Source of the DNA: CAVPRW01 sp046727435 [NCBI: bacterium]
Lineage (GTDB): Bacteria > Tectomicrobia > Entotheonellia > J063
Assembly (NCBI GenBank): GCA_046727435.1
Contig: JBKPCR010000430.1
Location: forward strand, 1 to 8,301
Reading direction: 5' to 3'
DNA length: 8,301 nucleotides
In this document: positions 1 to 8,301 of the stretch, piece by piece
Position numbering within the stretch: position 1 is the first letter of the stretch
Layout of the letters: every line of letters starts with the position of its first letter
Notes under the pieces: model-generated
The model's database searches: none
What the model saw: the letters and a program-made list of their open reading frames with translations, nothing else
What the model was told of the DNA's origin: nothing
Translations under genes and position numbers: made by a program

Positions 1-153
1 CAACTCGACCGCGAGATCATCGACGCGCGCGTCTGGGGGGGCATTCACTTCCGCCAGACGGATGAGGACTCCAGCGCTCTCGGGCACAAGATCGGAGAGT
101 ACGCCGTGCAGACGTGGCTGCGGCCTCTATCCCCGAATGTAGGCTTGCGGTGA
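1..153 (+). CDS. C-terminal end of a PAP2/vanadium-dependent haloperoxidase-like protein (5' truncated by window)
   Basis: Frame 1 is open from the first base to a TGA at 151-153, giving the last 50 residues of a protein that starts outside the window. It carries ARVWGGIHFR (residues 9-18 of the fragment), which is the third core motif of the PAP2/vanadium haloperoxidase fold: Arg10 and His16 keep the R-x5-H spacing of the vanadate- or phosphate-binding site. The tail that follows (ALGHKIGEYAVQTWL) matches the closing helix of the family. Members are acid-phosphatase-fold enzymes, either phosphatases or haloperoxidases, usually exported. The R and H of this motif are intact, but the Lys-Arg-Pro and PSGH motifs are outside the window, so activity cannot be judged. 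The motif wording (GGIHFR) differs from the tandem PAP2 protein at 1513-2907, so it is a different subfamily member. I am confident of the superfamily and unsure of the exact enzyme. Confidence 0.75.
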   Translation, partial: QLDREIIDARVWGGIHFRQTDEDSSALGHKIGEYAVQTWLRPLSPNVGLR

Positions 154-216
154 CACAGATGACAGTCCTGGACGAGTGCTGCCTTCCGCGTAGCTGTGCG
201 ATGACCAAAGACACGT

Positions 217-327
217 GAGGTCCAATTTCGCAGTGACCTCGAGGCGGGCTCTGCCATTGGGCGCGCAGTGGCCGAGAAGGTCATCGAACGGACGCAGTCC
301 GACGGGGCAGTGGCCAAAGCCCCGTAG
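217..327 (+). pseudogene. Decayed fragment of a tandem PAP2/haloperoxidase-like gene
   Basis: Frame 1 (217-324, TAG at 325-327) encodes EVQFRSDLEAG followed by SAIGRAVAEKVIER and SDGAVAKAP. This lines up closely with residues 212-238 of the tandem PAP2 protein at 1513-2907 (ANYRSDIDAG, TLGQAVAQQALARA, TDGSDAKW). The Gln where the catalytic His would sit, next to FRSD, resembles the N-terminal half of that family (Asn there) and not the His-containing C-terminal half. Upstream the frame is closed by TGA at 202-204, there is no start codon or ribosome site, and the sequence stops where the family would continue into the second half. I infer a relic of a second tandem PAP2 gene, left after deletion. 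A chance match is unlikely given about 30 consecutive family-like residues. Confidence 0.6.
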
Positions 328-403
328 CCTGACCCACGGCCAAGAGGCCATGTCCCAGCGAGGACCCAGGCGAGCATGGGCCCCGCACATTCACACGCAT
401 GCT
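328..403 (+). other. Leader of the DoxX-like gene; no gene seen
   Basis: Between the PAP2 relic and the ribosome binding site of the next gene I see no coding sequence, RNA gene or clear promoter hexamers. An in-frame ATG at 376 could extend the following gene by 13 residues, but it lacks a ribosome site and would add an unfavourable polar leader. The stretch 154-216 just upstream is equally featureless. Confidence 0.4.
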
Positions 404-411
404 GGAGGGAG
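404..411 (+). promoter_or_regulatory. Ribosome binding site that decides the start of the DoxX-like gene
   Basis: GGAGGGAG lies with its GGAGG core 6 nt before ATG 415. The alternative in-frame ATG at 376 has no comparable site, so 415 is taken as the start. Confidence 0.65.
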
Positions 412-414
412 CAG

Positions 415-1302
415 ATGTTTCGCCAACTGCCTGCGGTGTCAATCGTGCCACAGCCGGCCATTGCCACGACACTGTGTGATCCGGTGGCGCGACACACGCT
501 GGAATGGAAACTCCATTGGTTGTTGCGCCTTGCTCTGTGCTTTGAATTTGTCGGCCATGGCGCCTTCGGCGTGATGACGAAAGCCGCCTGGCTCTCCTAT
601 TTTGCGCTGTTTGGCATCCCAGAAGCCTGGGCGTGGCGGCTGATGCCCGTGGTGGGGAGCGTGGATATCGCATTGGGGGCGCTGATGCTGGTGGCGCCGA
701 CACGCGCTGGGCTCCTGTACATGTCCTGGTGGGGGCTCTTTACCGCGCTGCTCCGCCCGCTGGCGGGGGAAGGGTGGTGGGAGTTTTTCGAACGGGCGTA
801 TAACTTCGGGATGCCCTTGCTGATGCTCTGGGTCCATGGCCCTGGGAGCAGCGCCACCTCGTGGCTTGCCGTGCTCACCACCATCCCACGCTTGACCGTG
901 GCCAAGGCGCGCACCTATCAGTGGGCGCTCCAAGCTATAATGGCGAGCATGCTCATCGGACATGGGGGCTTGGGGCTGGTGATGGGCAAACCCAACCTCC
1001 TCCAGTTGTATGCCATGGTGGGGTTGGGGGGCTTTAGTGTGCCTCTCCCCACCGTGCGCGCCGTGATTGGTGGGGTGGAAATGCTGCTGGGGGTATGCTG
1101 TTTGGCGGTCAAGAGCGTGGCCTTTTTCCTCGGCGTGTGTCTGTGGAAGCTCGGCACCGAAGGGTTATATGTCCCCGCGCAGGCGTATGGGGCGTGGTGG
1201 GAAGTCCTGGAGCGCGGCAGTAGCTATGCGGCCCCGCTCGTGTGGATTGGCTTACAGCGGGTGGTTAAGCGCGCCCGGTGCCCTCTGGACGAAAAGGACT
1301 GA
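415..1302 (+). CDS. Integral membrane protein with two tandem DoxX-like repeats
   Basis: A 295-residue, strongly hydrophobic protein with roughly eight predicted membrane segments. It is built from two homologous units about 135-140 residues apart. Unit 1 has a GHGAFG motif (His48), a VVGSVDIALGALML helix and a GWWEFFER motif (Trp121-Arg127). Unit 2 repeats these as GHGGLG (His183), AVIGGVEMLLGVCCL and AWWEVLER (Trp261-Arg267). The helix pattern and GHG start resemble the DoxX/DoxX-like superfamily, small four-helix membrane proteins linked in some species to quinone or thiol redox reactions, so this looks like an in-frame fusion of two DoxX-like domains. Substrate and partners are unknown. 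It sits between PAP2/haloperoxidase-like genes, which may or may not be functional. The N-terminal 30 residues are not a clear signal peptide. The family call is moderate; the internal duplication is clear. Confidence 0.7.
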   Translation: MFRQLPAVSIVPQPAIATTLCDPVARHTLEWKLHWLLRLALCFEFVGHGAFGVMTKAAWLSYFALFGIPEAWAWRLMPVVGSVDIALGALMLVAPTRAGLLYMSWWGLFTALLRPLAGEGWWEFFERAYNFGMPLLMLWVHGPGSSATSWLAVLTTIPRLTVAKARTYQWALQAIMASMLIGHGGLGLVMGKPNLLQLYAMVGLGGFSVPLPTVRAVIGGVEMLLGVCCLAVKSVAFFLGVCLWKLGTEGLYVPAQAYGAWWEVLERGSSYAAPLVWIGLQRVVKRARCPLDEKD

Positions 1303-1498: not shown

Positions 1499-1512
1499 AA
1501 AGGAGAGCGATC

Positions 1513-2907
1513 ATGTTCACGCGGAAGTGGCACTCTGTGAGACTCGTCGTGATGACGCTGGCGCTCCTCGGCGTCATGGCGCTCCCCGCCAGCGCCGAGG
1601 TCGTCGGCGACGGGCCGAAAGTGGGGCAGTGGAAGACTTGGGTGCTCGCCAGCGGCAACGAGATTAAGGTGCCGGCGCCGCCGGCTGAGACTTCCGACCA
1701 GACCACAGCCGAGCTGGCAGAACTGCGACAGCTTCAGAAGGAGCGCTCGCCGAGCGCCAACACGGCGATCCAGTACTACCACGCCGTGCCGGCCACGCAG
1801 CGCTGGCACGACCTCGCCTTCGCGCTCGCCCGGGCTGAGAAGCAGAGTCCGAACCGCCAGGCGCGACTGGCGGCCATTCTGCACACGGCGTTGCACGACG
1901 CTGTGATCGTGACCTGGGCCGCGAAGTACCAGTTCAACCGCACGCCACCCACCCAGGTGGCGCCGGATGTGACCCCTGTGGTCCTGATTACCGGCGAGGG
2001 CCCGGCGCCGGAGGCGTCGTATCCGTCCGAGCACGCGGCGATCGGGGGGGCCGCGGTCGGCATCCTGACGGCGTTCTTCCCAAAGGAGGAAACCAATCTG
2101 AAAGCCATGGCTGCTGAGTTGGGTCAGACGCGGCTACTGATGGGTGCCAACTACCGCAGCGACATTGATGCAGGGTTTACACTCGGCCAGGCAGTGGCGC
2201 AGCAGGCGCTCGCCCGTGCCGCCACCGACGGCTCAGACGCGAAGTGGACTGGCACGGTGCCGACCGGGCCAGGGATGTGGGTCGGGAAGGATCCGCTGGA
2301 GCCGCTGCAGGGGACCTGGAAGCCGTGGCTGCTGACACGGGGCGACCAGTTCCGGCCAGGGCCGCCGCCGGCCGTTGGCTCGGCGGAGTTCGAGGAGGAG
2401 TTGGCGGTGCTGAAACGGATCAACAGTCACCCGATACCATCCCAGCGCGCCATCGCCACCAACTTTGCCACCAAGAGCCTCGACTTCGTCTGGGAACCAG
2501 GCTATGCCCTCGTGCGCCGTGAGCGGCTCAGCGTGCCCCGTGAGGTGCGGCTATTGGCGCCGTTTGCCGTCCTGTATTTGGACGCCTTCATCGCTGCGCA
2601 CGATGCGAAATATCTTTACTGGCGTCTGCGGCCGAACATGGCGGACCCCACGATTGCGCCGTTGATCCCGCAGCCAAACCATCCCGCCTACGTGTCGAAC
2701 GCCGCGATCATTGCCAGCGCGGTGGCGGAACTGGTCAGCTACATGTTCCCGCAGGAGGCGGCCCGCTGGCAGTATCTGAGCGAGGAGGCCGGCCTGTCCC
2801 GTATCTACGGCGGCATCCACTACCCCAGCGATGAACGTGCCGGAAGCCAGATGGGCAAAAGCATTGCCGCACTGGCGATCCGACGCGATCAGGCCAACGG
2901 ACCCTAG
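1513..2907 (+). CDS. Secreted tandem PAP2/vanadium-haloperoxidase-like protein with incomplete active sites
   Basis: A 464-residue protein with a Sec signal peptide (residues 1-28, cleavage after ASA). Two homologous PAP2-fold units follow, each opening with a WKxWxL motif (Trp40, Trp269). The family core is K-x6-RP, PSGH-like, then SR-x5-H. In the N-terminal unit Lys138 is present, the Arg of RP is Pro145, PSEH is intact (His174), and TR-x5-N has Arg207 but Asn213 for His. In the C-terminal unit K-x6-RP (Lys366, Arg373) and SR-x5-H (Arg430, His436) are intact, but the PSGH position reads VSNA, with Ala397 for the catalytic His. His174-Arg207 and Ala397-Arg430 are both 33 residues apart, which supports this alignment. 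It is exported and may bind phosphate or vanadate, but classical haloperoxidase or phosphatase chemistry is doubtful. AAAGGAGAG at 1499-1507 lies 5 nt before ATG 1513. The family is certain, the activity is not. Confidence 0.85.
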   Translation: MFTRKWHSVRLVVMTLALLGVMALPASAEVVGDGPKVGQWKTWVLASGNEIKVPAPPAETSDQTTAELAELRQLQKERSPSANTAIQYYHAVPATQRWHDLAFALARAEKQSPNRQARLAAILHTALHDAVIVTWAAKYQFNRTPPTQVAPDVTPVVLITGEGPAPEASYPSEHAAIGGAAVGILTAFFPKEETNLKAMAAELGQTRLLMGANYRSDIDAGFTLGQAVAQQALARAATDGSDAKWTGTVPTGPGMWVGKDPLEPLQGTWKPWLLTRGDQFRPGPPPAVGSAEFEEELAVLKRINSHPIPSQRAIATNFATKSLDFVWEPGYALVRRERLSVPREVRLLAPFAVLYLDAFIAAHDAKYLYWRLRPNMADPTIAPLIPQPNHPAYVSNAAIIASAVAELVSYMFPQEAARWQYLSEEAGLSRIYGGIHYPSDERAGSQMGKSIAALAIRRDQANGP

Positions 2908-3101: not shown

Positions 3102-3326
3102 CCACATCATCTGTGTGGCGTTCCATCCCTTAATGAACCTCCTGGGTGGATATCATCTAATGGAGGAGGGAATTCCTCAGTATCGCGGCGAGAGGGAAGA
3201 GAGGTATATTGCTGGGTGTGCACTCTGCAGCGAGCGTCATATGACTATGGGTTGCAGATGCGCCTCGGTTGGACGCTATGACAGCCTCATGGTTGCAACC
3301 CTGCGAGGAGAGGGGGAAAAGTGGGA

Positions 3327-3575
3327 ATGCCTTTGAGAGCGCTAGAAGTGGTGGGCACTATTGATGAACAGCGGCGACCGCAGTTGGACGAGCCCCTGCC
3401 GATAGTCGGCCCCAGTCGAGTCCGTGTCATCATCTTGATCCCTGAAGAGACCGACCTAGACGAGCAGCAGTGGCTTCAGGCTGCAGCGGTCAACCCGGCC
3501 TTCGATTTCCTCAAAGAGCCTGAAGAAGACATCTACACCCTGGACGATGAGAAACCATTTCATGACCAAGGGTAA
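3327..3575 (+). CDS. Antitoxin of a PemK/MazF-type toxin-antitoxin pair
   Basis: An acidic protein of 82 residues (84 if GTG 3321 is used). It contains TIDEQRRPQLDEPLPIVG, a hydrophobic VRVIILIPEE strand, NPAFDFLKEPEEDIYTL, and a short KPFHDQG tail. This ordering is that of small antitoxins found directly before PemK/MazF-like toxins in several uncultivated and cyanobacterial lineages (recalled resemblance, not searched). No AbrB-type or ribbon-helix-helix DNA-binding segment is obvious. The gene overlaps the following toxin gene by 14 nt, the usual translational coupling of such pairs. Purine-rich sites GAGGAG and GAGGGGG at 3305-3316 serve either start; ATG 3327 is preferred because of its start codon. 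It should bind the toxin and block its RNase activity, but the toxin is frameshifted here, so the antitoxin may be orphaned. The frame itself shows no damage. Confidence 0.65.
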   Translation: MPLRALEVVGTIDEQRRPQLDEPLPIVGPSRVRVIILIPEETDLDEQQWLQAAAVNPAFDFLKEPEEDIYTLDDEKPFHDQG

Positions 3576-3938
3576 AGTCGTTCTAGTGCCGTTTCCATTC
3601 GACGACCTGTCCGCCACCAAAGTGCGGCGTGCAGTGTGCTTGACCGAGCCGATCGGGCTCATCAGCATGTTATTTTGGCGTTCATCACCAGCCGAACACC
3701 CGCTCCCTTACTGCATACCGACCTGGTATTGGATGCCAACCATGCGGATTTTACGTCGACAGGCCTCCGGGTATCCTCCACACTTCAGCTGCATCGCCTG
3801 ATGTCCGCTACGACTTCGCTGATCCGGCGTGAACTGGGAGCATTGTCTCCAGCGATGCAAACCGATGCCGCTAATAGACTACGCGAGATGTTCGGGCTAT
3901 GGGGGACCACGAGCAACAGCACCGGGGACGGGTTGTAG
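3562..3938 (+). pseudogene. Frameshifted PemK/MazF-like mRNA-interferase toxin
   Basis: The reading starts at ATG 3562 (MTKGKVVLVPFPFDDLSATK), the N-terminal signature of PemK/MazF-type endoribonucleases. In this frame it keeps family sequence up to EPIG (codon ending 3657), then becomes unrelated. Shifting one base earlier, codons from 3657 restore it: HQHVILAFITSRTP, DLVLDANHADFTSTGL, RVSSTLQLHRLM, SLIRRELGALSP, ending near EMFGL (3899). A single-base loss at about 3655-3660 explains this. No slippery heptamer or stimulatory structure is apparent, so programmed frameshifting is unlikely; a sequencing error is possible. In addition the conserved Pro after KVR is Arg (VRRAVCL). After FGL the frame runs on for 13 non-family residues (3900-3938) into cyclase-like DNA, so the normal stop is also lost. 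Probably an inactive toxin. Confidence 0.7.
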
Positions 3939-4306: not shown

Positions 4307-5203
4307 ATGAGAACCATCAGGCAAGTAGGTTTTGCAACGGCGGTGGCGGCGCTGTTGTTGGCCACGACAGCGGCGGTCGCGCTCGCACAGTCGCCGCAAG
4401 GCAAGAAGCTCTATGTGTTCAGCTCTGGGGCGCTGACGATCGGCAAGCACATTCTCCAGAACCTCGCCCCGCAGGATACGATCAAGGTGCCGGTGGGCTT
4501 TTTCGTGGTGATGCATCCCAAGGGGAACGTGCTGTTCGATACGGGCAACAACGACAAGATCATCATGGATCCGAGCTATTGGGGCCCCGCTTTCCAACGC
4601 CTCAGCCCGGTGAATACCCCCGATATGGCCATTGACGCCCAACTGGGCAAGATCGGCCTCAAGCCCGATGACATCAAGTATGTGGTGGTGAGCCACTTAC
4701 ACCTCGATCACGGCGGCAACGTCGGCAAGTTCCCCAACTCGACCCTGATTGTGCAGAAGGACGAAATCCGCAACGCCTTCTGGCCTGAGCCCGGGACGGC
4801 CGGACCGTACATTCCGGGGGATATTGCGCCGCTGCGCAGTGACCTTGGCGAAGCCATGCCGAACAAGTACAAGATGATCCAGCTCCACGGCGACATCGAC
4901 ATCTTCGGTGACAACAGTGTGGTCGTGAAGCGCTGGGTCGGCCACACTCCCGGCAGCCAAATGATGGTGGTGCGCCTGCCAAAGACCGGTACCATTATTC
5001 TGACCGGTGACAATGTCTACTTCCGGGAAAACGTCGAGAAGAACATTCTACCCAACGTCGTGTTGGCCTATGACCCCTCTGGCATTTTGCGGGCCTATGA
5101 ATGGATCCGTTACCTGCAGGCCACTGAGAAGGCGGACTTCTTCACGGCCCACGATCCCGACGCGTTCAAGGCGCTGAAGAAGCCACCGGAGTATTACGAC
5201 TAG
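4307..5203 (+). CDS. Secreted N-acyl-homoserine-lactonase-like metallo-beta-lactamase-fold hydrolase
   Basis: A 298-residue protein with a Sec signal peptide (residues 1-27, cleavage after ALA), so probably periplasmic or secreted, unlike the cytoplasmic Bacillus AiiA. All ligands of a two-metal site are visible: HLHLDH gives His130, His132, Asp134 and His135; GHTPGS gives His213; Asp235 bridges; His282 lies in TAHDPD. Asp235 is followed by Asn-Val-Tyr238, the D-x-x-Y spacing of Asp191 and Tyr194 in AiiA, where the Tyr helps lactone opening; the ENVEKN that follows resembles the AiiA ENFEDE segment. Family members open the homoserine lactone ring of quorum-sensing signals; related enzymes act on other lactones. 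Start chosen from AGAGGGGGAG at 4290-4299. The gene appears to stand alone, with its own promoter. The fold is certain, the substrate inferred. Confidence 0.85.
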   Translation: MRTIRQVGFATAVAALLLATTAAVALAQSPQGKKLYVFSSGALTIGKHILQNLAPQDTIKVPVGFFVVMHPKGNVLFDTGNNDKIIMDPSYWGPAFQRLSPVNTPDMAIDAQLGKIGLKPDDIKYVVVSHLHLDHGGNVGKFPNSTLIVQKDEIRNAFWPEPGTAGPYIPGDIAPLRSDLGEAMPNKYKMIQLHGDIDIFGDNSVVVKRWVGHTPGSQMMVVRLPKTGTIILTGDNVYFRENVEKNILPNVVLAYDPSGILRAYEWIRYLQATEKADFFTAHDPDAFKALKKPPEYYD

Positions 5204-5266: not shown

Positions 5267-5335
5267 AACGCATAGTGTGGAGATTTTTCGCCTGTGAGAG
5301 GCGACCCCAAGAGCTGGCTTTGTCAGGTTGGGATT

Positions 5336-6277
5336 ATGACCCCCGTTATCGTCGCGGAGCAATTGAGCAAGCGCTATGGGGCACGGCTTGCTGTTGATCG
5401 GGTGTCCTTCGACGTCAGGGCCGGCGAGGTCATGGGCTTACTTGGGCCAAACGGCTCGGGGAAGACCACAATTCTGCGCATCCTCGCTGGCTACCTGCGT
5501 GCCTCGTCGGGCACGGCACGCGTGGCGGGATTCGACGTGGCGGAGGAAGGGCTCCAGGCGCGCCGGTATGTGGGCTATGTGCCGGAGGAGCTGCCGCTGT
5601 ATACTCATATGAGGGTGGACGAGTTCCTGGCATTTATGGGCCGCCTCAAGGGACTGACCGGCCGTCCGTTGCACGATGGCATGGCGTTGGTGTGCGAACG
5701 CTTGGCGCTCTCTAAGGTGCGGCACATGGTGATCGGCAAGCTGTCGCGTGGGTATCGTCAGCGGGTGGGGATCGCCCAAGCGCTACTCAATAATCCGCCA
5801 CTCCTGATCCTGGACGAACCGACCAACGGGCTTGACCCGCACCAGATTATCGCGATACGTAAGCTGATTCGCACCCTAGCCACAACGCAGACGATCCTCG
5901 TGACCTCGCACATCCTCGGCGAGATCGAAAAGGTCGCGCACCGCGTCGCAATCTTACTTGACGGTCGTCTGCTCGCGGTGCAGGCGCTCGACGGCGGCGA
6001 TATCGTCCGCCACCTGCGACTGACCATCCGTGGCCGACCACAGGCGAAGGTACAGACGTGCCTGCGCGCTGTGCCAGGCGTGGAGGACGTGACCATGGAA
6101 GCTCTGACGCATGGTGAGGTGTCTAAATACCTGGTGCGGGTGCAAACCGTGAGCCTTGCCGAGTCCCTGGTCGCAGCGCTGGTGGCACACGGCTTCGGGG
6201 TGCTGGAGATCCGACCAGAACGGGCGGACCTGGAAACGCTATTTCTGCAACTGACAGGCGCTGAGGCCATGGTATGA
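5336..6277 (+). CDS. ABC transporter ATP-binding protein, GldA-like
   Basis: A 313-residue cytoplasmic ATPase that would drive the permease encoded next. Walker A is GPNGSGKTT (residues 37-45). The Q-loop position reads GYVPEELPLY, with Glu84 for Gln, as in many GldA-type ATPases. The signature is LSRGYRQ (136-142) in place of LSGGQ, Walker B is LLILDEP (156-162), the D-loop NGLDP follows, and the H-loop His is His192. After about residue 215 comes a C-terminal regulatory-type extension. ATG 5336 is chosen because family sequence (VIVAEQLSKRYG) starts there; the GTG at 5294 would add 14 unrelated residues and lies in a small hairpin. The stop overlaps the permease start by 4 nt (ATGA). The exact cargo is unknown; Gld-type systems are best known from Bacteroidetes gliding but homologues occur widely without gliding. 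Confidence 0.9.
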   Translation: MTPVIVAEQLSKRYGARLAVDRVSFDVRAGEVMGLLGPNGSGKTTILRILAGYLRASSGTARVAGFDVAEEGLQARRYVGYVPEELPLYTHMRVDEFLAFMGRLKGLTGRPLHDGMALVCERLALSKVRHMVIGKLSRGYRQRVGIAQALLNNPPLLILDEPTNGLDPHQIIAIRKLIRTLATTQTILVTSHILGEIEKVAHRVAILLDGRLLAVQALDGGDIVRHLRLTIRGRPQAKVQTCLRAVPGVEDVTMEALTHGEVSKYLVRVQTVSLAESLVAALVAHGFGVLEIRPERADLETLFLQLTGAEAMV

Positions 6278-6975
6278 GCCCCTTGCTGACCCTCCTGGCC
6301 AAGGAAACAAAAGCGTTGTTTTCTTCGCCGATTGCCTACGCTGTCATCGCCGTGTTCCTGCTGCTCATGGGTTATTCCTTTACCGCCTTCTTGTTCCTCA
6401 ACAAGACCTCGAGCCTGGTGCACCTCTTCTTTCAGGCCGCAGTGCTGTTCCTGCTCATGGTGCCGGTGCTGACCATGCGCCAATTTGCGGAGGAGCGCAA
6501 GACCGGAACGCTTGAGTTGCTGCTCACCGCTCCCGTGCGCGAGATCGACATCGTCCTGGCCAAATTTCTTGCCAGCATGGCGGTGAACGCCAGCATGCTA
6601 GCCCTGACACTGACCTATGCCGGCGTGCTCCAGGCGTATGGGGAGCCGGACTGGGGTCCCATCTATAGCGGCTACCTTGGCCTTGTGCTGTTCACAGCGG
6701 CGCTGGTGGCGCTGGGCTTAACCGTCTCCGCGCTCACGGCGAACCAGATCGTGGCGGCGGTTGTCTCGCTGGGCCTGTTTCTGGTGCTGTGGATGATCGA
6801 TACGCTCGGCTCGCTGCTGCCGTATCCCTTCGATAACATGGTGCTGAGCGTCTCACTGCTGGCCCATTTCACCCCTTTCGCCACCGGCGCCATCTACCTC
6901 TCCGATATGGGCTTCTTCGTCAGCCTCATCCTTCTCGGGCTGTTCTTGAGCGTGCAGGCGTTGGCGCGGCGCTAG
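6274..6975 (+). CDS. ABC-2 type permease, GldF-like
   Basis: A 233-residue membrane protein with about six hydrophobic segments (roughly residues 18-40, 48-68, 95-117, 130-150, 156-180 and 208-230). After the first two lies the cytosolic coupling stretch MRQFAEERKTGTLELLLTAPV, the hallmark of ABC-2 permeases of the GldF/NosY type, which contacts the ATPase. The length fits the family. Its ATG overlaps the ATPase stop codon and the next gene begins 4 nt after its stop, so the three are almost certainly co-transcribed and translationally coupled. It should form the inner-membrane channel of the exporter; the substrate is not evident from sequence. Confidence 0.88.
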   Translation: MSPLLTLLAKETKALFSSPIAYAVIAVFLLLMGYSFTAFLFLNKTSSLVHLFFQAAVLFLLMVPVLTMRQFAEERKTGTLELLLTAPVREIDIVLAKFLASMAVNASMLALTLTYAGVLQAYGEPDWGPIYSGYLGLVLFTAALVALGLTVSALTANQIVAAVVSLGLFLVLWMIDTLGSLLPYPFDNMVLSVSLLAHFTPFATGAIYLSDMGFFVSLILLGLFLSVQALARR

Positions 6976-6979
6976 ACCG

Positions 6980-8301
6980 ATGGAACATCACGCCTCCCTG
7001 GAACCGACCAAACTGCTCTGGTTCGCTGGCTGGTGCGCGGCACTGCTTGTGCTCTTTGTCCTGGGCATCCGGCTGCCCCTCCAGCCACGGTTGTCGCGCT
7101 TTGCAGGCTTCATGTTTACTGTTGGAAGCGTTGTTGCGGCCATCGGCCTGGTTATCCTGGCCAATGTCGCGCTGGTCCTGCACGACGTGCACTTCGATCT
7201 CACACGCGAGCGCGTCTTTACGCCGTCCAGGCATGCGCTAGAGGTGGTGGATCGCCTCGCCCAGAACGTGCATCTGACCTATTTCTACCAGGCGCAGGAT
7301 CCGAACGGGAAACGGCTCAGGGATCTGGTCACCATGCTGGGCCGACGCAATCGGCGGCTACACGTACGCACCGTCGACCCGGACAAGCAGCCAAGCCTGG
7401 CGGCAACGCACGGCGTGCGCCTCTACAACGCCGCGGTGTTGGAGGCCGACGGCCGACGCATAGTGGTGCAGAGTACAAACGAGAACGACTTGGCCATTGG
7501 CATCCAGCGGGTCTTACGTGAGCAGGTGATCACGATCTGCTTCATCGAGGGACACCACGAGTATCCGATCGACAACTTCGAGTTCCACACCCATCTGGAA
7601 GGCCTGCACGATCACAGTCACGGCGATGCGTCTTCCAAGGTCGTACAGATGCCGGGTCACGGCATTGGGCGGCTGAGGCGTGCGCTCGAGGCGCACGGCT
7701 TCGAGATGCGCACCATCATCCCCGCCATGCAGCCGGAGATCCCCGTTGACTGTGCTGCGACGATCGATGTGAATCCACGCACGACCTATCTGCCCGGCGA
7801 GAGTACCACGTTCGAGGCGTATCTGGCGCGCGGCGGCTCGCTGCTACTCATGTATGACTTGGGCTTTGTCGTCGAACCGCGGCTGGGACGCCTACTTGAG
7901 ACCCTGGGCGTGCGGCTCACCCAGAGCGTGGTGATCGATCCGCAGCAGCACTATGGGACCGACCCAGAGATGGTGGCCGTGAGCAGCCTCGAACCGCATC
8001 CCATCAGCAAAAATGTGTCGTTGACGTTCTTTCCCGGGGCCCGGGCGCTGGAGCTCGTCCCTACGACGGCGGACATCACCGCGGTACCGCTTATCCTCTC
8101 CAGCGAAGCCAGCTATAGACGACCTGTGGAGCCCGTGGAAGCGCGGCAGGTGAGCCCTGACCTCCTGCCTATATCCCCAATAGCCGCGTTGTCAGAAGCA
8201 AAACCGCACCGCCATGTGCTTGCGGTGGCGACGGAAGGCACATGGCCGGGCGCGAGCCCGGATGCCCGCCCATTCCGCGCCGTCATCATTGGTGATGCCG
8301 A
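6980..8301 (+). CDS. GldG-like ABC auxiliary membrane protein (3' truncated by window)
   Basis: An open frame from ATG 6980 runs off the right edge without a stop (440 codons seen). Two membrane helices occupy residues about 12-34 and 42-67. A large periplasmic part follows, beginning FDLTRERVFTPSRHALEVVDRL, the characteristic opening of GldG/ABC_transp_aux proteins. Later landmarks are FIEGHHEYPIDNF, GHGIGRLRRALEAHGFE, YLARGGSLLLMYD and SLTFFPGARALEL, in the order expected for the family. A His-rich loop lies at residues 203-214 (His203, 205, 210, 212, 214). These proteins act with GldA/GldF-type ABC exporters at the inner membrane; their mechanism is poorly known. It starts 4 nt after the permease stop and lacks its own ribosome site, implying coupling. 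A further partner, often a DUF4340 protein, may follow outside the window. Confidence 0.88.
   Translation, partial: MEHHASLEPTKLLWFAGWCAALLVLFVLGIRLPLQPRLSRFAGFMFTVGSVVAAIGLVILANVALVLHDVHFDLTRERVFTPSRHALEVVDRLAQNVHLTYFYQAQDPNGKRLRDLVTMLGRRNRRLHVRTVDPDKQPSLAATHGVRLYNAAVLEADGRRIVVQSTNENDLAIGIQRVLREQVITICFIEGHHEYPIDNFEFHTHLEGLHDHSHGDASSKVVQMPGHGIGRLRRALEAHGFEMRTIIPAMQPEIPVDCAATIDVNPRTTYLPGESTTFEAYLARGGSLLLMYDLGFVVEPRLGRLLETLGVRLTQSVVIDPQQHYGTDPEMVAVSSLEPHPISKNVSLTFFPGARALELVPTTADITAVPLILSSEASYRRPVEPVEARQVSPDLLPISPIAALSEAKPHRHVLAVATEGTWPGASPDARPFRAVIIGDA

What the first reader, a model, noticed from the sequence alone, without database searches (positions are those of the whole stretch)
1513..2907. 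Tandem PAP2/haloperoxidase-like protein with reciprocal active-site loss in its two halves
The N-terminal half keeps Lys138, PSEH (His174) and Arg207, but has Pro145 where the RP Arg belongs and Asn213 for the last His. The C-terminal half keeps Lys366, Arg373, Arg430 and His436, but the PSGH His is Ala397. The His-to-Arg distance is 33 in both halves, so the alignment is sound. From vanadium chloroperoxidase, the missing residues are those that protonate or hold vanadate/phosphate. Either the protein has become a binding or structural protein, or the halves cooperate in a composite site, or it is decaying while still read through.
Basis: partly seen in the sequence, partly recalled or inferred. 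Interest (0 to 1): 0.6.

Follow-up and report, generated by a model that had tools for sequence, protein, structure and literature searches.

The report
Two-domain haloperoxidase-like protein missing one histidine
The gene encodes an intact, apparently secreted relative of vanadium haloperoxidases made of two similar halves: the first is a worn second site seen throughout the family, and the second keeps its anion-binding pocket but lacks one helper histidine, a loss that appears to have happened several times in this family and does not look like a dying gene.

Summary
The reading is partly right. P0001 is a full-length two-bundle protein of the vanadium-haloperoxidase (VHPO) fold (pLDDT 91.6; 4CIT Z 33.3), in a tandem-PAP2 family of rhizobia, Chloroflexi, Acidobacteria and Actinobacteria. 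The N-half's last His is absent in 72 of 72 rows; its RP Arg is absent in all 13 rows of the window's clade and in 10 of 59 others. The C-half's distal His is kept in 63 of 72 rows, with four changes by parsimony. In the nine rows without it, Lys366, Arg373, Ser395, Arg430, His436 and Asp440 stay, 9 of 9. The window keeps 45 of 50 near-invariant columns. Decay is unlikely; a composite site finds no support, though its distance was not measured. Most likely the C-half still binds vanadate or phosphate, with altered chemistry, and the N-half is a relic of the proposed VHPO duplication. New: DM13 electron-transfer domains beside or fused to relatives (8 of 19 DM13 places in six genomes). Activity is untested.

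The parts
1501..1507 (+). Shine-Dalgarno-like AGGAGAG, 5 bases before the ATG
   Evidence: sequence read directly
1513..2907 (+). intact CDS, 464 aa, tandem PAP2 / VHPO-fold protein P0001
1513..1596 (+). likely export signal (aa 1-28; judged by eye, no signal-peptide program run); mostly low-confidence stretch of the model
1618..2241 (+). N-terminal helical bundle (aa 36-243), acid-phosphatase fold with an incomplete site: K138, P145, H174, R207, N213
2242..2904 (+). linker and C-terminal helical bundle (aa 244-464): K366, R373, S395, R430, H436, D440 kept, distal His position is A397
1945..1947 (+). codon of Pro145 (RP Arg in 49 of 72 rows; A, P or G in the 13-row clade)
2032..2034 (+). codon of His174 (N-half PSEH; His in 52 of 72 rows)
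2149..2151 (+). codon of Asn213 (last-His position of the N-half; His in 0 of 72 rows)
2701..2703 (+). codon of Ala397 (GCC) at the distal acid-base His position
2818..2820 (+). codon of His436, by alignment the equivalent of the axial vanadate ligand / nucleophile

Best explanation
P0001 is an intact, probably exported two-bundle protein of the VHPO fold. Shown by computation: both halves are PAP2/acid-phosphatase bundles; the N-half lacks the nucleophile His throughout the rows examined; the C-half keeps the oxyanion cradle (Lys366, Arg373, Ser395, Arg430) and the axial His436 but has Ala at the distal acid-base position, where some other lineages have Ala, Ser or Thr. Inferred: the N-half is a relic of the duplication proposed for VHPOs and mainly completes the scaffold, perhaps with a residual anion site; the C-half still binds vanadate or phosphate; without the distal His it is not a normal chloroperoxidase or acid phosphatase. 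I think it most likely runs oxidative chemistry at bound vanadate that does not need that proton donor (for example bromide, iodide or sulfide oxidation), or an altered reaction, as the VHPO homologue NapH3 does.
For: Residues. Fold: pLDDT 91.6, pTM 0.90; 4CIT Z 33.3 over aa 66-464; XhnO11 9L8X 28.2; NapH1 3W35 27.0; NapH3 8CXL 26.3; VCPO 22.5-23.1; acid phosphatases on one half, mostly 16.6-18.3. Profile of 47 rows: 4CIT first, E 6e-34. Selective loss: the nine rows without His397 keep K366, R373, S395, R430, H436 and D440 in 9 of 9; four changes by parsimony. Selection: 45 of 50 near-invariant columns; dN/dS 0.029/0.188 = 0.155 for L044/L045 (Ala type) against 0.17 and 0.19 for His-type pairs L007/L008 and L016/L020. 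The VCPO H404A mutant is tabulated with bound vanadate (1VNG; PMC8407142, passages). Vanadate in VCPO: His496 axial, Lys353, Arg360, Ser402, His404, Arg490 hold it (PMC10278073, passages). Duplication and fusion suggested for VHPOs (PMC4859513 section 7). Redox neighbours in relatives: DM13, sulfite oxidase.
Against: No activity, metal or phosphate binding was measured. The window protein sits on a long end branch (1.41, median 0.22; 1.22, median 0.19) and no relative over 42% identity was found, so relaxed constraint is not excluded and its own dN/dS was not computed. A Ser397-type pair (L017 second gene / L053) has dN/dS 0.228/0.535 = 0.43, though a diverged His-type pair (L088/L089) has 0.35. 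Pfam's VCPO_2nd and VCPO_N models do not match P0001 even at E 1, and single-sequence phmmer ranks acid phosphatases above 4CIT, through the N-half. The table that lists vanadate in H404A lists it for H496A and R360A too, so it shows only that a damaged pocket can hold vanadate in a crystal. No DM13 or sulfite oxidase lies in the window. NCBIfam phosphatase models match weakly, below their cut-offs.
Confidence: 0.55

Rival explanations
1. Pseudoenzyme: an oxyanion-binding or scaffold protein with no catalysis, the bound phosphate or sulfate being structural.
For: Neither half has all five residues. The cradle is kept 9 of 9 where the acid-base His is gone, as binding alone would predict. The N-half triad K138/H174/R207 is kept 13 of 13 in the clade although its nucleophile is gone.
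Against: The axial His436 and Asp440 are also kept 9 of 9; a pure binding protein need not keep the nucleophile.
Confidence: 0.25
2. Relaxed or decaying gene beside other broken haloperoxidase-like pieces.
For: Long end branch. A relic of another tandem-PAP2 N-half lies at 205-327.
Against: 464 codons open, ribosome site, 45 of 50 near-invariant columns kept, GC3 0.84 and 0.81 in the two halves. Four of the five C-half catalytic residues kept. Loss of His397 recurs in relatives with full-length open frames.
Confidence: 0.08
3. Acid phosphatase with a weak acid-base step (good leaving groups only).
For: PAP2 family; NCBIfam PhoC and SepP models match below cut-off; single-sequence phmmer ranks acid phosphatases first. 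VCPO has been reported to show phosphatase activity (PMC4859513 section 7).
Against: Full-length best matches are VHPOs by family profile and by fold. Some relatives lie beside redox genes.
Confidence: 0.07
4. Composite or inter-subunit site: His174 of the N-half, or of a neighbouring subunit, supplies the acid-base His missing from the C-half.
For: His174 is kept 13 of 13 in the clade holding 6 of the 9 non-His397 rows. In AmVHPO the substrate site is built from two subunits (PMC11871015 passages).
Against: Each half matches a whole acid-phosphatase bundle, which should put His174 with K138 and R207 of its own half. His174 retention is not tied to loss of His397 (8 of 9 vs 44 of 63, p 0.43); L003 lacks both. 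Distance not measured.
Confidence: 0.05

Closest known systems
Zobellia galactanivorans vanadium iodoperoxidase (4CIT/4USZ)
   Same: whole two-bundle fold, linker and C-half motifs (Z 33.3, 344 residues aligned; profile E 6e-34)
   Different: in the profile search its N-half gave only a 2.7-bit stretch, and its C-half keeps the SGH His; here the N-half still scores as PAP2 and the C-half has Ala
NapH3 (8CXL), VHPO homologue of napyradiomycin biosynthesis
   Same: VHPO fold (Z 26.3); precedent for a member that is not a halogenase (PDB title; PMC12871659 passages)
   Different: those passages tell it from NapH1 by a catalytic Lys and Ser; its own motifs could not be read here
Curvularia vanadium chloroperoxidase and its H404A mutant (1VNG)
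   Same: C-half site with the same kind of change; tabulated with vanadate (PMC8407142)
   Different: a laboratory mutant; here the change is natural and seen in several lineages
'Phosphatase PAP2 family protein' of rhizobia (WP_017957736.1 and others)
   Same: same tandem architecture, 33-40% identity over nearly the full length
   Different: C-half complete (KRHRH) and N-half KRHRQ in nearly all rhizobial rows (L030 and L033 differ)
Class A non-specific acid phosphatases (1D2T, 7F17, PhoN, PhoC)
   Same: one half alone has this bundle (Z mostly 16.6-18.3; 9HTZ 14.4)
   Different: single bundle; here two in one chain and neither with a complete site

Membership tests
PAP2 superfamily (PF01569) | profile match over the curated cut-off | tested here: met
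   76.7 bits against 27.2, two stretches
Vanadium-dependent haloperoxidase | two helical bundles in one chain, VHPO fold | tested here: met
   4CIT Z 33.3 over aa 66-464; the first 14 rows are VHPOs or NapH3
Vanadium-dependent haloperoxidase | match to Pfam VCPO_2nd / VCPO_N | tested here: not met
   neither listed for P0001 at E up to 1; relative L048 matches both weakly, below cut-off
Vanadium-dependent haloperoxidase | Lys and RP Arg of the C-half motif | tested here: met
   K366, R373; 72 of 72 rows each
Vanadium-dependent haloperoxidase | distal His of the PSGH motif | tested here: not met
   Ala397; His in 63 of 72 rows
Vanadium-dependent haloperoxidase | Arg, axial His and Asp of the last motif | tested here: met
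   R430, H436, D440
Vanadium-dependent haloperoxidase | binds vanadate, oxidises halide with H2O2 | not testable with these tools
   needs protein
Class A acid phosphatase | complete five-residue site in one bundle | tested here: not met
   N-half lacks Arg and nucleophile His, C-half lacks acid-base His
NCBIfam PhoC (NF045654) / SepP (NF047884) | score over the equivalog cut-off | tested here: not met
   38.6 of 430 and 49.2 of 250 bits
Tandem-PAP2, VHPO-like family | both halves homologous over the full length, N-half without last His | tested here: met
   72-row alignment; last His of the N-half in 0 of 72
13-row actinobacterial clade (N-half K-[APG]-H-R-[NAS]) | window groups with the 12 actinobacterial rows on the tree | tested here: inconclusive
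   tree holding them together scores 11.4 lnL better, p-AU 0.736, but the window's branch is long; residue pattern agrees

The most novel reading that the evidence does not exclude
In the clade that includes the window, two incomplete sites are both kept by selection: an N-half K/H/R pocket without nucleophile (13 of 13 rows) and a C-half vanadate cradle that has dropped its acid-base His in 6 of the 13. The protein would be a two-site oxyanion redox enzyme, served in its relatives by a DM13 electron-transfer partner, instead of a haloperoxidase or phosphatase.
Probability: 0.12. Interest if true: 0.75.

Novelty: new variant of a known kind. Interest (0 to 1): 0.45.

Why it matters
Duplication and fusion have been suggested in the origin of VHPOs from acid phosphatases (PMC4859513 section 7). 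This family keeps recognisable PAP2 motifs in the N-terminal bundle, so it gives sequence-level support for that step. It also offers natural VHPO-like proteins in which the distal His is gone in several lineages while the vanadate cradle stays, so the role of that His can be tested on natural variants, and it links parts of the family to DM13 and sulfite oxidase redox neighbours.

Tried and rejected
Nothing over 42% identity was found, so the window's own dN/dS was not computed. Genome searches scored only part of the candidates in many genomes, so their tallies are lower bounds.

Compensating residue: a screen for H, D, E, C, K, R, Y or W gained in at least three of the four loss groups gave 12 columns; only column 419 (W/H/W/Y) met it in all four, and it lies 11 residues before Arg430 in the same helix, judged too far. 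No His is shared. Ser392 is S in 58 of 63 His397 rows and 0 of 9 others, but with four independent pairs the sign test cannot reach significance (p 0.25-0.5).

Composite site: set aside on co-occurrence and domain grounds, not on a measured distance (no coordinates in the box).

NapH3's own motifs could not be read: meant to bring it up, listed 4CIT, VCPO entries and 9L8X. RNA families: none at gathering score in the window. Phyla for which I had no locus could not be searched, so the host of the window is unknown.

Confidence: on re-checking, the best explanation was lowered from 0.60 to 0.55, because vanadate is tabulated for H496A as well, VCPO Pfam models miss P0001 and the Ser-type pair has dN/dS 0.43.

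Papers: PMC8407142, PMC11871015, PMC10427571, PMC10278073 and PMC12871659 (a preprint) seen as passages; PMC4859513 as passages and section 7. PMC4249250, PMC40244 and PMC212741 are not held and nothing of them was seen. Not found in the held library: at least three of tandem PAP2, PAP2 domain, haloperoxidase, pseudoenzyme, Curvularia (0 papers); DM13 with haloperoxidase (0 papers). Searches listed 2 and 6 papers, none with a title on this family; of those I had read parts of PMC4859513 and PMC10427571 and no other.

Full report
Observation. The ORF at 1513-2907 encodes 464 aa (P0001). PAP2 (PF01569) matches in two stretches, E 1.8e-21; Pfam's VCPO_2nd and VCPO_N do not match at E up to 1. A Shine-Dalgarno-like AGGAGAG lies five bases before the ATG, and the N-terminus looks like an export signal (by eye).

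What it is. By single-sequence phmmer the first solved relatives are acid phosphatases, through the N-half (7F17, E 3.6e-10), with 4CIT fifth. A profile of 47 family members ranks the Zobellia iodoperoxidase 4CIT first (E 6e-34), aligned through the linker and the C-half, then acid phosphatases and chloroperoxidase. The AlphaFold model is confident (pLDDT 91.6, pTM 0.90). Foldseek's first 17 rows are VHPOs or NapH3. VIA-align puts nearly the full chain on 4CIT Z 33.3, 9L8X 28.2, NapH1 27.0, NapH3 26.3, Curvularia VCPO 22.5-23.1. Acid phosphatases match one half at a time, mostly Z 16.6-18.3 (9HTZ 14.4): most rows on aa 35-243, PhoN 2A96 on aa 270-464.

The family. tblastn in plasmids gave full-length relatives in Rhizobium, Phyllobacterium and Microvirga at 33-37%. 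One scan of genome contigs with a four-row alignment gave 67 loci. Searches drawn from Actinobacteria, Chloroflexi and Acidobacteria gave matches at E 1e-25 in 6 of 396, 3 of 251 and 9 of 247 genomes, centre genomes included; two class searches gave 1 of 66 and 2 of 24, and a family search with the Variovorax protein at E 1e-40 gave 1 of 200. From the 101 loci then held, 71 full-length rows were kept with the window; 26 partial frames and 12 duplicates were dropped.

The ten columns (72 rows). N-half: Lys138 in 70, Arg145 in 49, His174 in 52, Arg207 in 64, last His in 0. C-half: Lys366 72, Arg373 72, His397 63, Arg430 71 (Thr in L056), His436 71 (L084 ends before it). No N-half is complete; 61 of 72 C-halves are. 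So the N-half's missing nucleophile is a trait of the whole sample. Arg145 is absent in all 13 rows of the group made by the window and 12 actinobacterial rows (A 10, P 2, G 1) and in 10 of the other 59; in those 13 rows K138, H174 and R207 are kept 13 of 13.

Loss of His397. Nine rows have Ala (window, two Variovorax, Microvirga L003), Ser (L017 twice, L053, L083) or Thr (L048). Parsimony on two unrooted quick trees needs four changes. In these nine rows Lys366, Arg373, Ser395, Arg430, His436 and Asp440 are kept 9 of 9. Of the partial rows left out, the broken-up L064 has Thr, and those with a readable C-half otherwise mostly have His. The pattern is removal of the distal His with the oxyanion cradle and axial His kept.

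Decay or not. The window keeps 23 of 26 near-invariant N-half columns and 22 of 24 C-half ones, catalytic columns set aside, within the range of intact relatives. Third-position GC is 0.84 and 0.81 in the two halves. The Ala397-type Variovorax pair L044/L045 has dN 0.029, dS 0.188, ratio 0.155; His-type pairs give 0.17 (L007/L008), 0.19 (L016/L020), 0.08 (L096/L099) and 0.35 (L088/L089); the Ser-type pair L017 second gene/L053 gives 0.43; the two L003 pairs have dS over 2.7 and are saturated. Against constancy, the window's end branch is long: 1.41, median 0.22; 1.22, median 0.19. Its grouping with the actinobacterial rows is favoured by 11.4 lnL but not proven (p-AU 0.736).

Composite site. 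His174 is kept in 8 of 9 rows without His397 and 44 of 63 with it (Fisher p 0.43), and L003 lacks both. Since each half matches a phosphatase bundle, His174 should sit in its own pocket. The distance was not measured.

Mechanism. In Curvularia VCPO His496 is the axial ligand and Lys353, Arg360, Ser402, His404 and Arg490 hold vanadate (PMC10278073, passages). The H404A mutant is tabulated with vanadate (1VNG), but so are R360A and H496A (PMC8407142). By homology P0001 should still bind vanadate or phosphate. That loss of the distal His weakens chloride oxidation, and proton transfer to a leaving group, is my recollection of the VCPO mutant work and of acid-phosphatase mechanism, not a call. I therefore favour altered oxidative chemistry over a full chloroperoxidase or phosphatase, with a binding-only protein as main rival.

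Context. With the DM13 domain of L046 as query, phmmer at E 1e-6 over the 103 held loci found DM13 in the same frame as the L046 tandem-PAP2 protein, next to it in L053, L035, L084, L085, L088, L089, L048, L064 and L086, and about 1.4 kb away in L017; besides duplicates of these, no other held locus matched, including clade loci L079 and L083, whose flanks are short. PF10517 was called in L046 and L048. In six actinobacterial genomes PF10517 has 19 places, and 8 lie within 1.5 kb of a tandem-PAP2 place (against places); by my hand estimate about 0.04 would be expected over their 23 Mb, though the domain was noticed first and tested afterwards. The tandem-PAP2 places G001 C106 and G148 C154 and the partial G003 C4 have none; G004 and G005 (Chloroflexi, Acidobacteria) and the 14 control genomes have no DM13. 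Sulfite oxidase-like genes lie directly upstream in Variovorax L044/L045 and in L030, downstream in L001, L005, L015, L025 and L054, and 4 kb away in L013: nine distinct loci, a minority of those held (L001 annotated as such; L044 by Pfam). The window shows neither. These redox neighbours suit an oxidative role but do not prove it.

Verdict. A new variant of a known kind: a VHPO-fold protein whose N-half is a recognisable relic of a duplicated phosphatase bundle and whose C-half naturally lacks the distal His.

Noticed in passing
1-150 (+): C-terminal end of another VHPO-like protein running in from the left edge (31% over 36 residues to aa 422-457 of P0001; Pfam VCPO_2nd E 0.0009, below cut-off).
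   Followed up: partly
205-327 (+): Isolated relic resembling a tandem-PAP2 N-half (44% over 32 residues to aa 213-244 of P0001; no Pfam match), so the locus seems to have held several haloperoxidase-like copies.
   Followed up: partly
L017 5860-7371 and 7415-8953: Two adjacent tandem-PAP2 genes, both with Ser for the distal His, in an Acidimicrobiia MAG.
   Followed up: partly
L046, L048, L053, L035, L017, L084, L085, L088, L089, L064, L086: DM13 electron-transfer domain in frame with, next to or near tandem-PAP2 genes of actinobacteria; 8 of 19 DM13 places in six genomes are within 1.5 kb of one.
   Followed up: yes
L044/L045 and L030 upstream; L001, L005, L015, L025, L054 downstream: Sulfite oxidase-like molybdoenzyme gene beside the tandem-PAP2 gene in different arrangements.
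   Followed up: partly
3547-3938 (+): PemK/MazF-like toxin gene apparently broken across two frames (Pfam PemK_toxin E 0.0005 in the second piece, below cut-off, none in the first), preceded by an 84-aa ORF (3321-3575) without a Pfam match.
   Followed up: no
376-1302 (+): DoxX-like membrane protein, weak DoxX_3 match (E 0.003, below cut-off).
   Followed up: no
4307-5203 (+): Metallo-beta-lactamase-fold protein (E 5e-16) with a signal-like N-terminus by eye.
   Followed up: no
5294-8301 (+): ABC transporter ATPase, ABC-2 permease and ABC_transp_aux genes in a row; the last runs off the window.
   Followed up: no
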